From: Jiangella sp. DSM 45060
GTDB taxonomy: Bacteria; Actinomycetota; Actinomycetes; Jiangellales; Jiangellaceae
Assembly: GCF_900105175.1 (NCBI RefSeq)
Contig: NZ_LT629771.1
Span: 5,724,622 to 5,788,621 of the forward strand
Length of the DNA stretch: 64,000 nucleotides
Direction of reading: 5' to 3'
Shown: positions 8,088 to 63,429 of the stretch, in pieces
How the letters are laid out: each line of letters begins with the position of its first letter
How positions within the stretch are numbered: the stretch's first letter is position 1
Made by a program: the position numbers and the translations under genes
Notes under the pieces: model-generated
Databases searched by the model: none
What the model was told of the DNA's origin: nothing
What the model saw: only the letters and a program-made list of their open reading frames with translations

Positions 8088-8154
8088 CGGGCGGCCGGCG
8101 CGCCGCGCGAACGCCGACGCGCCGCACGCAAGCCCGCGGGTCGCGCGCGCCGAC

Positions 8155-8201
8155 GTTGTCGGTGCCCGCCCATAGGGTGGGTGCCCTCCCAGCCGGGCGG
8201 G
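8155..8201 (+). promoter_or_regulatory. Copy A of a repeat carrying a PafBC-type (RecA-independent damage) motif
   Basis: TTGTCGGTG (8156-8164), an eight-base spacer beginning CCCGC, then TAGGGT (8173-8178). This fits the mycobacterial RecA-NDp promoter consensus tTGTCRgtg-N8-TAnnnT exactly. It is followed by G/C-rich sequence ending near 8201. It lies between the convergent phytase and NUDIX genes and would fire rightward, antisense to the NUDIX gene. The match is seen; promoter activity is inferred. Confidence 0.6.
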
Positions 8202-8220
8202 CCATCGAACCCGGCGGGCG

Positions 8221-20566: not shown

Positions 20567-20649
20567 CCGCGTCGCCGGCTGCCCTGCGCCGCCGGCCGGC
20601 CGGCGCGGGCTGGCGGCGCGCCGCTTGCCGCTCCGATGGGCTACGTAGA

Positions 20650-20697
20650 CCCCTCCCGGCCCGGGTGGGGCCCACCCTACGGGCGGGCACCGACAAC
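20650..20697 (-). promoter_or_regulatory. Copy B of the repeat with a PafBC-type motif
   Basis: On the minus strand: TTGTCGGTG, an eight-base spacer starting CCCGC, then TAGGGT (20696 down to 20674). Next comes a GGGTGG/CCACCC hairpin and more G/C-rich sequence. It lies between the convergent TetR and LLM genes and points leftward, antisense to the TetR 3' end. Confidence 0.6.
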
Positions 20698-20769
20698 CTC
20701 GCGGCTGTCGACAACGTCGTCGCGCCGACAGCCAACGTCGTCGCGGCTATCGACAAGCGTCGCCGTGGG

Positions 20770-57690: not shown

Positions 57691-57703
57691 CACCGAGGTG
57701 ACA

Positions 57704-57751
57704 CCCCGCCCGGCCGGGTGGGAGGCCCACCCTACGGGCGGGCACCGACAA
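57704..57751 (-). promoter_or_regulatory. Copy C of the repeat with a PafBC-type motif
   Basis: On the minus strand: TTGTCGGTG, an eight-base spacer CCCGCCCG, TAGGGT (57751 down to 57729). The perfect hairpin GGGTGGG-CCT-CCCACCC follows, then GGCCGGGCGGGG. It sits between two tandem arrays in the gap between the convergent ROK and HTH genes and points toward the ROK 3' end. Confidence 0.65.
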
Positions 57752-57767
57752 CGTCGCCGCGAACGTG

Positions 57768-61206: not shown

Positions 61207-61560
61207 ATGAAGTACATGCTCATGCTGTTCGAGCGGGACACCGACTGGGACGCGGTGCCGGAGGCCGAGCGTGCGGCGGCGCTGGACGAGCACGGGGCGT
61301 TCATCACCTACCTGCGCGAGCGCGGCATCGAGTTCTCCGGCGAGGCGCTGCGGCCGTCCACGACCGCGACCACGCTGCGCCCGGCCGGGCCGGACCAGGA
61401 GCTGCTGGTGACGGACGGGCCGTACGTCGAACTGAAGGAGAATCTCGCCGGCTTCTACATCGTCGAGGCCGCCGATCTCGACGACGCCGTCGAGATCGCC
61501 CGGCACTGCCCGACCGGCACCGGGACGGAGATCCGGCCGCTGTGGGACACCGGGATGTGA
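61207..61560 (+). CDS. YCII-related (DGPF) protein
   Basis: The 117-residue protein starts MKYMLMLFERD and has LLVTDGPYVELKENLAGFYIVEAADLDDAVEIA, the YCII/DGPF core. It is the partner of the ECF sigma factor immediately downstream; start and stop overlap by four bases (GTGA). In the ECF42 group such DGPF proteins are conserved but their biochemical role is unsettled. Ribosome site GGAAGG lies upstream. Confidence 0.9.
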   Translation: MKYMLMLFERDTDWDAVPEAERAAALDEHGAFITYLRERGIEFSGEALRPSTTATTLRPAGPDQELLVTDGPYVELKENLAGFYIVEAADLDDAVEIARHCPTGTGTEIRPLWDTGM

Positions 61561-62801
61561 CCGACGCCGTCGCCGACGCGCACCGCCGGGGCTGGGCCCG
61601 GGTCCTGGCCACGGTGGTGCGGGTCACCCGCGACCTCGACGCCGCCGAGGACGCCGTCCAGGACGCGTTCGCGGCGGCCGTCGAGCGGTGGCCGGTTGAA
61701 GGCGTGCCGGACGACACGACGGCCTGGCTGACCACCGTCGCCCGGAACCGGGCGCTGGACGCGCTGCGGCGGGAGCGGACGCTGGCCCGCAAGCTGCCGC
61801 TGCTCATCGTCCCCGGCGACGACGCACCGGCCGGCCGCGAGGCGATCGAGGACGAGCGGCTGCGGCTGGTGTTCACGTGCTGCCATCCGGCGCTGTCGCT
61901 GCCCAGCCGGGTCGCGCTGACGCTGCGCCTGGTCTGCGGCGTCCCCACGCCGGACGTCGCGCGGCTGTTCCTCGTCTCGCAACCGACCATGGCGGCGCGG
62001 CTGACGCGGGCGAAGAAGAAGATCCAGGCCGCCGGGATCCCGTACAAGGTGCCGGCGGAGCACGAGCTGCCCGACCGGCTGCCCGCCGCGCTGGCGGTGG
62101 TGACGCTGCTGCTCACCGAGGGCCACACGGCGTCGCGAGGTGCCGGGCTGGGCCGGCCCGAACTCGTCCGGACGGCGACCGAGCTGGCTGAGGTCCTCGC
62201 CGAGCTGATGCCGGACGAGGCCGAGGTGCTGGGCCTGCTGGCGACCGTGCGGCTGGCCACGGCCCGGCGGCCGGCCCGCCTCGACGACGACGGCGGGCTC
62301 GTGCTGCTGTCGTCGCAGGACCGGTCGCGCTGGGACCGTTCGCTGATCGCCGACGGGTGCGCGCTGGCGGCCCGGGCGATGCGGCGGGCGGTGCCGGGGC
62401 GGGCCGGGCCGTACGCGCTGCAGGCGGCGATCGCGGCTGTGCACTCGGAGGCGGCGACCTACGAGGCGACCGACTGGCCCCAGATCGTCGCGCTGTACGA
62501 CCTGCTGCTGACCGTGGCCCCGTCGCCGGTGACCCGGCTGGCCCGGGTGGCGGCGTGGTCGTATGTGGCCGGGCCGGAGTTGGCGCTCTCCGAGGTGGCC
62601 TCGCTGGCCGCCGATGCGCGGCTGAGCGGGTACTACGGCGTGCCGGCCGTCCGCGCCGACCTGCTGCGGCGGCTGGGCCGGACGACGGAAGCGGCGGCCT
62701 CCTACGAGGAAGCCGCCGCCTTGACCGCCAACGAGGTGGAACGGTCGTACCTGCTCGCTCAGGCCGCCGCCGTCCGCAGGACGGGACGGCGGCCCGAGTA
62801 G
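61557..62801 (+). CDS. ECF42-type sigma factor
   Basis: The 414-residue sigma factor has region 2 (VTRDLDAAEDAVQDAFAAAVERWP), region 4 (LTLRLVCGVPTPDVARLFLVSQPTMAARLTRAKKKI) and a C-terminal TPR-like extension of about 230 residues (AATYEATDWPQIVALYDLLL, ALTANEVERSYLLAQAAAV). That layout and the preceding DGPF gene define ECF42, which has no classical anti-sigma and is controlled through its extension. GTG start overlaps the YCII stop. The target is probably the YCII promoter itself. Confidence 0.92.
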   Translation: MTDAVADAHRRGWARVLATVVRVTRDLDAAEDAVQDAFAAAVERWPVEGVPDDTTAWLTTVARNRALDALRRERTLARKLPLLIVPGDDAPAGREAIEDERLRLVFTCCHPALSLPSRVALTLRLVCGVPTPDVARLFLVSQPTMAARLTRAKKKIQAAGIPYKVPAEHELPDRLPAALAVVTLLLTEGHTASRGAGLGRPELVRTATELAEVLAELMPDEAEVLGLLATVRLATARRPARLDDDGGLVLLSSQDRSRWDRSLIADGCALAARAMRRAVPGRAGPYALQAAIAAVHSEAATYEATDWPQIVALYDLLLTVAPSPVTRLARVAAWSYVAGPELALSEVASLAADARLSGYYGVPAVRADLLRRLGRTTEAAASYEEAAALTANEVERSYLLAQAAAVRRTGRRPE

Positions 62802-62858
62802 GCGCGGGCGTCCGGACACGAGCTCGGCGAACCGCCGATGGGTGCGGCACTCGTCTGC

Positions 62859-62967
62859 CGCGAGTCTGTCGGTGCCCGCGCGTAGGTTGGACCCACCCGG
62901 TCCGGGGCGGGGCGTGCCCACCCCGCGCGCGGCGCAAACCCCACTGTGGCCGGCCGCCTCACCGGCG
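62859..62967 (+). repeat. Copy D: long repeat with PafBC-type motif
   Basis: CTGTCGGTG (62866-62874), spacer CCCGCGCG, TAGGTT (62883-62888), then G/C-rich sequence to about 62967. The whole 109-bp stretch recurs as copy E 191 bases further on with a few differences. It lies between the convergent sigma and bL31B genes and points toward the latter. Confidence 0.7.
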
Positions 62968-63049
62968 TCCATTCACGCGCCCCGAACCGGGTGGCGACGG
63001 CGATCTGCGCCACTGGCGCCGAAGGCACACCCGGCGGCGCTGGTGCGGA

Positions 63050-63158
63050 CGCGAGTCTGTCGGTGCCCGCGCGTAGGTTGGACCCACCCGGTCCAGGGCG
63101 GGGCGTGCCCACCCCGCGCACGGCGCAACCACACTGCGGCCGGCCGCCCTCGCCGGCG
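63050..63158 (+). repeat. Copy E: long repeat with PafBC-type motif
   Basis: CTGTCGGTG (63057-63065), spacer CCCGCGCG, TAGGTT (63074-63079) and the same G/C-rich tail as copy D. It ends 26 bases before the bL31B stop. The two copies are a recent direct duplication, with unique sequence of about 80 bases between. Confidence 0.7.
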
Positions 63159-63183
63159 CCCGCTCAGTCCGATAAGGCGCCGC

Positions 63184-63429
63184 TCAGCGAGCGCTGTAGC
63201 GCCGCCGGAACTTCTCGACCTGGCCCGCGGAGTCCAGGATCCGCGTCCGCCCCGTGTAGAACGGGTGGCTCGCGGCCGAGATCTCGACGTCGACGACGGG
63301 GTAGGTGTTGCCGTCGTCCCACAGGAGGGTCTGGTCGGTGCGGGCGGTCGAGCGAGTGAGGAACGCCAGGCCGGCGTCGGCGTCGCGGTAGACGACCGGA
63401 CGGTAGTCGGGGTGGATGTGCTTCTTCAC
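63184..63429 (-). CDS. rpmE2: Ribosomal protein bL31, type B (zinc-independent)
   Basis: The 81-residue protein begins [20 protein letters not shown] and ends [23 protein letters not shown], the type B bL31 pattern. It lacks the CxxC zinc ligands of type A. Bacteria make it in place of the zinc-binding form when zinc is scarce, which frees zinc from ribosomes. The GTG start has AAGGAGG upstream. A Zur-type dyad lies 14-28 bases before the start, which fits that role. Confidence 0.95.

What the first reader, a model, noticed from the sequence alone, without database searches (positions are those of the whole stretch)
62859..63158. Duplicated 109-bp element, each copy with an exact PafBC-type damage motif
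Copies D and E, 191 bases apart, each hold CTGTCGGTG-N8-TAGGTT. The motif tTGTCRgtg-N8-TAnnnT is established for RecA-independent DNA-damage promoters in mycobacteria, activated by PafBC. With copies A, B and C this gives five matches, all in gaps between convergent genes, none upstream of a gene. That is opposite to a normal promoter. They may be damage-inducible small RNAs, antisense promoters, or a repeat family that spreads by carrying this promoter.
Basis: partly seen in the sequence, partly recalled or inferred. Interest (0 to 1): 0.7.

Follow-up and report, generated by a model that had tools for sequence, protein, structure and literature searches.

The report
Scattered damage-type promoter repeats in Jiangella
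A genus of soil bacteria carries many scattered copies of a 65-letter DNA element that looks like a complete DNA-damage promoter, mostly placed between genes that face each other rather than in front of a gene, and evolution has kept the element nearly unchanged while its surroundings drifted.

Summary
D and E are a 94-97% identical tandem pair, start-to-start 191 bp. They belong to a dispersed family whose core was found only in Jiangella. The genome has 165 matches to TGTCGGTG-N8-TANNNT against 0 for the reversed pattern. In a contiguous 1.264 Mb, 48 of 52 exact TGTCRGTG sites are in repeats.

The unit is about 65 bp: PafBC-type box, 8-bp spacer, -10, imperfect inverted repeat. Between two species it changed at 33 of 821 positions against 290 of 1303 in flanks (p=9e-35), core motif at 2 of 133, so it is under selection. 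The same motif precedes uvrC, radA and uvrB here, and PafB-PafC are present. A G000 subfamily replaces the box by 11-bp direct repeats 8 bp from the same -10, the stated SARP spacing. Both support a real, activator-dependent promoter.

The excess in convergent gaps is real (24 of 35 intergenic sites, p=1.5e-10) but not exclusive. No RNA structure, Y1 transposase or clear insertion event was found. Transcription was not testable, so product and purpose are inferred.

The parts
62857..62922 (+). element copy D (conserved unit, about -10 to +55 around TGTC)
   Evidence: extent from divergence profile
62867..62874 (+). copy D: PafBC-type -26 box TGTCGGTG
62883..62888 (+). copy D: -10 hexamer TAGGTT
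62892..62912 (+). copy D: imperfect inverted repeat CCCACCC-GGTCC-GGGGCGGGG at the expected start site
   Evidence: family pattern
63048..63113 (+). element copy E
63058..63065 (+). copy E: PafBC-type -26 box TGTCGGTG
63074..63079 (+). copy E: -10 hexamer TAGGTT
63083..63103 (+). copy E: imperfect inverted repeat
62802..63183 (.). convergent gap holding D and E, between a sigma-70-type (DUF6596) gene (61557-62801 +) and the ribosomal protein L31 gene (63184-63429 -)
8147..8212 (+). element copy A (box 8157-8164, -10 8173-8178, inverted repeat 8184-8201), between phytase-like (+) and NUDIX (-) genes
20640..20705 (-). element copy B (box 20688-20695, -10 20674-20679, inverted repeat 20651-20669); about 190 bp of gap with it are absent from G004 and G005
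57695..57760 (-). element copy C (box 57743-57750, -10 57729-57734, inverted repeat 57705-57722); the orthologous G004 element is nearly identical inside diverged flanks

Best explanation
A genus-restricted family of dispersed, roughly 65-bp elements, each a complete activator-dependent promoter: PafBC box TGTCRGTG, fixed 8-bp spacer, -10 TAnnnT, followed by an imperfect CCCNCCC/GGGNGGG inverted repeat where transcription should start. When DNA is damaged, ssDNA-activated PafBC would engage RNA polymerase at these sites as at uvrC or radA, and start short non-coding transcripts. In the commonest setting, a gap between convergent genes, these run antisense into the 3' end of the facing gene. 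Shown here: the repeats, their anatomy, selection on motif and inverted repeat, the excess in convergent gaps, matching native promoters, PafBC, and a subfamily in which the PafBC box is replaced by SARP-spaced direct repeats before the same -10. Inferred: that they fire on damage, the direction and length of the RNA, and any benefit from it.
For:: 165 exact genome hits, reversed control 0; core motif 2/133 changed, R position 2/15 (both G/A), seventh base 3/15, -10 middle 0/45, inverted repeat 7/285, flanks 290/1303; among 145 distinct elements the R position is only G (125) or A (20); same motif before uvrC and radA (start codon 7 nt after the -10) and upstream of uvrB; PafB-PafC-TatA-TatC cluster; box-swapped subfamily, two 11-bp direct repeats, 8 bp to TAGGGT; SARP rule from a passage of PMC10936776; 24 of 35 intergenic sites convergent, p=1.5e-10. 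Other Jiangella, duplicates and own loci removed: 14 of 29, p=2.8e-4.
Against: No transcript data. The constraint ends at about +55, so little of any transcript is conserved. RNA folding is no better than shuffles. The genes flanking the window copies share no obvious function. The sites are dispensable: several species lack the D/E and B elements. 9 of 57 elements in the contiguous stretch no longer match the motif exactly. The one box-swapped form I searched for was absent from the other 11 genomes. Elements were found with a profile seeded by motif-bearing copies.
Confidence: 0.55

Rival explanations
1. A DNA-level site at gene ends: the element is bound by a chromosome-organising, insulating or termination protein through the CCCNCCC/GGGNGGG repeat, and the upstream box is part of that site rather than a promoter.
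For: Enriched between convergent genes, often close after a stop codon; inverted repeat as constrained as the motif; middle bases of the two arms non-complementary in 120 of 121 fitting elements, unlike an RNA hairpin selected for pairing; no RNA structure signal.
Against: Constraint inside the box follows the PafBC degeneracy; the box can be exchanged for SARP-spaced repeats at the right distance from the same -10, which a structural site would not need; strands balanced over the genome, 86 and 79 (replichores not tested, origin not located).
Confidence: 0.2
2. A selfish repeat family: the elements multiplied by local duplication and an unknown transposition route, settle in convergent gaps because that does least harm, and the promoter is incidental or serves only their own copying.
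Against: Locus-specific variants are kept at orthologous sites while flanks decay; 17 of 22 sites shared with the nearest relative, one of them disrupted, and 2 of the 5 missing ones are remnants; no Y1 transposase; exact core absent from viral contigs, copy C without match in plasmids and phages.
Confidence: 0.15
3. Decoys: the copies outnumber native PafBC promoters and titrate activated PafBC-RNA polymerase, damping the damage response.
For: 48 of 52 exact motif sites in the contiguous stretch are in repeats; complete promoter geometry conserved.
Against: A decoy needs neither a conserved inverted repeat nor convergent placement; a SARP-type box would titrate something else.
Confidence: 0.06
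4. Damage-induced structured small RNAs with a common hairpin.
For: An inverted repeat follows the -10 in 121 of 133 distinct elements.
Against: RNAalifold finds no consensus fold, mean folding z -0.19, -0.11 and +0.31 for three segments of 54 distinct elements, no Rfam match near gathering score for the D/E gap, no conserved sequence beyond about +55.
Confidence: 0.04

Closest known systems
PafBC-dependent (RecA-NDp) promoters of mycobacteria and other actinobacteria
   Same: Box, 8-bp spacer, -10, substitution pattern, and PafBC with native repair-gene sites in the same genome
   Different: Those promoters precede protein genes; these are repeated, mostly in convergent gaps, and joined to an inverted repeat
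SARP (AfsR-type) promoters
   Same: One subfamily has two 11-bp direct repeats with 8 bp to the -10, the stated SARP rule (PMC10936776, passage)
   Different: The activator is unknown; PhoP boxes are also 11-nt repeats (PMC7866108, passage); seen in G000 only
REP/BIME and REPIN elements
   Same: Short, palindromic, intergenic, near 3' gene ends, in tandem clusters, and targets of insertion sequences
   Different: No RAYT (Y1) transposase in the genome; contain a complete promoter; clustered copies in one orientation
Putative mobile promoters ('promoter propagation', recalled; only papers using the term seen in a listing)
   Same: A promoter sequence repeated over a genome
   Different: Those, as I recall, were defined upstream of genes; these mainly are not

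Membership tests
PafBC-type promoter | TGTCRGTG, 8-bp spacer, TAnnnT | tested here: met
   48 of 57 elements in the contiguous stretch exact
PafBC-type promoter | PafB and PafC encoded and motif used by repair genes in this genome | tested here: met
   HTH_PafC 2.4e-37, adjacent WYL protein, TatA, TatC; uvrC, radA, uvrB
PafBC-type promoter | Drives a downstream gene | tested here: not met
   24 of 35 intergenic sites convergent; 3 divergent and 5 tandem in gene direction could serve a gene
PafBC-type promoter | Damage-induced, PafBC-dependent transcription | not testable with these tools
   No expression data
REP/REPIN | RAYT (Y1 transposase) in the genome | tested here: not met
   PF01797: 0 matches; 5 of 14 control genomes positive
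MITE | Terminal inverted repeats and target-site duplications at filled versus empty sites | tested here: inconclusive
   Copy B is flanked by an 8-bp direct repeat and absent in G004 and G005, no terminal repeats seen there; other absent sites are remnants, diverged or unalignable
SARP promoter (subfamily only) | 11-bp direct repeats, 3' repeat 8 bp from -10 | tested here: met
   13 distinct copies at five places in G000; where the 11-mer begins is my choice, one base later gives 7 bp; rule from PMC10936776 passage
13E12/DUF222 elements | DUF222 gene beside the motif | tested here: not met
   7 matches at 4 places; nearest exact hit about 4 kb away (1136368 and 1140543) among hits seen
Rfam RNA family | Covariance-model match at gathering score | tested here: not met
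   Four matches for window 62700-63300, all far below gathering; other copies not scanned

The most novel reading that the evidence does not exclude
Jiangella has built a genome-wide layer of portable, activator-dependent promoters that read out of gene ends, not into genes. A constant -10/start-site module is fitted with interchangeable sigma-adaptor boxes (PafBC for DNA damage; SARP- or PhoP-type in a newer subfamily), so that a stress signal switches on antisense transcription at many convergent gene pairs at once, and retained sites are kept by selection.
Probability: 0.3. Interest if true: 0.82.

Novelty: new variant of a known kind. Interest (0 to 1): 0.6.

Why it matters
Dispersed bacterial repeats are usually read as palindromes or transposon debris. 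Here a repeat is a complete stress promoter, conserved site by site, sitting where a promoter has no gene to serve, and in one species its activator box has been exchanged without disturbing the rest. One damage-treated RNA-seq experiment would tell whether a stress response can be wired to many gene ends at once. The copy number within the genus, from none detected to about 150, gives a natural comparison.

Tried and rejected
RAYT/REP: rejected as a membership, no Y1 transposase. DUF222/13E12 origin: rejected, no such gene beside a hit. Conserved RNA hairpin: not supported. Strand signal: overall strands are balanced (86 and 79); a hand-typed strand count of the first 70 hits tests nothing about replichores and is not used. 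Phage or plasmid carriage: none found with the exact core in viral contigs or with copy C in plasmids and phages. An 8-bp target duplication at copy B looked attractive, but G010 holds another element type at the same place and two other 'empty' sites in G004 are remnants, so deletion explains them as well. A terminator role was considered; no run of T follows in the copies I read, so it is kept only under the DNA-site rival. GTTCACN5GTTCAC as a proven PHO box: not established; the native hit I looked at precedes a protein with a Tat-like signal that I did not identify.

Rows dropped before counts: two of 17 orthologous pairs, one split by an insertion and one of different subfamily (one search keeps all 17); aligned cells with a gap; copies in the contig-end duplicate; elements without a full 5' half (133 distinct kept of 163 hits); for other Jiangella, three G000 loci and seven loci held twice, and 12 sites inside ORFs or at locus edges after that. 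An earlier count of mine, 19 of 36 with p=4.5e-6, contained those duplicates and is withdrawn; loci L291-L295 were not examined.

Limits: genes were called by my own script, not by an annotation. The element profile was seeded with motif-bearing copies, though it did recover copies lacking the box. The genus count scored at most 150 candidates per genome.

Full report
Observation. The window holds five exact matches to TGTCRGTG-N8-TANNNT, none expected by chance. D and E (62867 and 63058) are in a tandem duplication: 79 nt at 97% without gaps, then 22 nt shifted by one base, start-to-start 191. By my gene calls the five copies lie in four convergent gaps. The neighbouring genes are unrelated: a sigma-70-type (DUF6596) protein and ribosomal protein L31 at D/E, phytase-like and NUDIX at A, TetR and a luciferase-like monooxygenase at B, a ROK protein and an ORF without a Pfam match at C.

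Family. The window lies in a 7,485,957-bp contig with 165 matches (86 forward, 79 reverse) against 0 for the reversed pattern (the first 100 places are listed). Among 60 relatives the eleven of the same genus have 28 to 103 matches, the other ten family members 3 to 20, more distant ones 0 to 24. The 27-base core occurs only in Jiangella (23 stretches, five named species) in the collection of 84,980 species genomes. A sequence model of the unit finds, with at most 150 candidates scored per genome: G000 150, G004 145, G010 74, G008 72, G011 43, G002 35, G001 26, G005 26, G009 7, G007 5, G003 0, G006 0.

Anatomy. A profile search found 163 elements in the sequence then held. Across 37 divergent members, chosen among those with a full 5' half, the invariant letters include GTC-G-G of the box, TA and T of the -10, and GGG-GG of the inverted repeat. 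Conservation ends at about +55. The arms CCCXCCC and GGGYGGG are kept, but X and Y are non-complementary in 120 of 121 fitting elements; 12 of 133 did not fit. The 14 multi-copy sites among 39 in the contiguous stretch each keep one orientation.

Selection. I compared G000 with its nearest relative G004 over 0.8 Mb. Of 22 element clusters, all with orthologous flanks, 17 have an element in G004, one of them split by an insertion. Two of the five missing are remnants that lost the box end by deletion. Two G004 elements had no G000 partner. In all 17 pairs the mismatch rate is 3.5 to 10.7% over positions 0 to 54, 7% at -10 to -6, and 11 to 30% elsewhere. In the 15 clean pairs: core motif 2/133, R position 2/15 (both G/A), seventh base 3/15, spacer 6/120, middle of the -10 0/45, inverted repeat 7/285, flanks 290/1303; element against flank p=9e-35. 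Locus-specific variants are preserved, which argues against gene conversion to one consensus.

Is the motif a real promoter here? The same motif stands 7 nt before the start codons of uvrC (2154813) and radA (8771), and upstream of uvrB (2134015; the UvrB model matched my ORF from position 62, so the true start is nearer the motif). A WYL pair, the second with an HTH_PafC domain, followed by TatA and TatC, lies near 2.736 Mb. In mycobacteria PafBC activates through the RecA-NDp motif (PMC6789036, passages), sits between the promoter and sigma-A domain 4, contacts a -26 motif and is activated by ssDNA (PMC11804915, passages). In the contiguous stretch 48 of 52 exact sites are in repeats.

Box swap. 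Copies at five places in G000 (about 0.77, 2.05, 2.09, 2.97 and 4.42 Mb) have, instead of TGTCGGTG, a direct repeat of the type GGTTCACGCCT-GGTTCACGCGG, then the same CCCGCCCG-TAGGGT and inverted repeat. SARP promoters have direct repeats of 11-bp period with the 3' repeat 8 bp from the -10, and AfsR works by a mechanism resembling sigma adaptation (PMC10936776, passages). PhoP boxes are also 11-nt repeats (PMC7866108, passages), so the activator is open. The one form searched in the genus was absent from the other 11 genomes; that pattern also misses some of G000's own copies. Replacement of one activator box by another at the right distance from a constant -10 is, to me, the best sequence evidence that these are promoters.

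Placement. In the contiguous 1.264 Mb there are 57 copies at 39 sites. Of 35 intergenic sites, 24 are convergent (19% of 1136 neighbouring gene pairs are; p=1.5e-10), 5 tandem in gene direction, 3 tandem against, 3 divergent; 4 sites lie inside called ORFs. In other Jiangella, after removing G000's own loci and loci held twice, 14 of 29 intergenic sites are convergent (p=2.8e-4; named records alone 9 of 18, p=0.0026).

History of the window copies. At D/E, G004 has one copy with a damaged -10, G010 one and a fragment, G002 one of another subfamily; G007 and G008 have a gap without it; in G001, G005, G009 and G011 none was found (G003 and G006 unresolved). At B about 190 bp are absent in G004 and G005, and G010 holds a different subfamily. 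So copies come, go and duplicate, while retained ones are constrained.

Insertions. Two G000 elements (5577346 and 5964630) are split at an internal CTAG by a roughly 1.1-kb insertion with inverted ends and CTAG on both sides; in the first the ORF carries an IS481-type domain. The split G004 element shows CTAG on both sides too. This recalls REP elements as insertion-sequence targets (PMC1525189, title and start of abstract in a listing).

Mechanism and judgement. Shown: repeat family, promoter anatomy, selection, placement, native sites, box swap. Inferred: PafBC-dependent firing after damage and short non-coding, often antisense, transcripts. Against: no transcript data, nothing conserved after about +55, and no RNA fold. 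A DNA-binding site is the strongest rival.

Print. Searches for RecA-NDp, Jiangella with repeats, promoter propagation, PafBC with small RNA, REP with convergent genes, and Jiangella with PafBC (listings only) showed nothing on such a family. The library holds open-licence papers only.

Noticed in passing
G000 contig ends: about 3.9-8.8 kb and 7,476.6-7,481.5 kb: Element copies and the radA promoter recur at both ends of the contig with a constant shift of 7,472,689, so roughly 13 kb is duplicated, not perfectly identical: a terminal repeat or an unclosed circular assembly.
   Followed up: partly
G000:C1:5577346 and 5964630; G004:C4 2297972-2298998: Insertions inside elements at an internal CTAG; the first carries an IS481-type transposase domain.
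   Followed up: partly
window 62978-62994: A 17-nt inverted copy (94%) of the copy D arm lies between D and E.
   Followed up: no
window 20696-20755 (minus strand, upstream of copy B): Two or three imperfect reiterations of the element's first bases (GACGACGTTG-like) precede copy B.
   Followed up: no
G000:C1:6049195 and 6049732: Two copies of the same PafBC-type promoter with the beginning of a gene that looks like a methyltransferase (recognised by eye); the second looks like a truncated duplicate.
   Followed up: no
G013:C1:166560, C7:25737, C7:52250: Three identical 22-bp motif sites in another genus of the family, perhaps a separate small repeat.
   Followed up: no
G000:C1:5077664-5078059: A DUF222 match with an in-frame TGA.
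   Followed up: no
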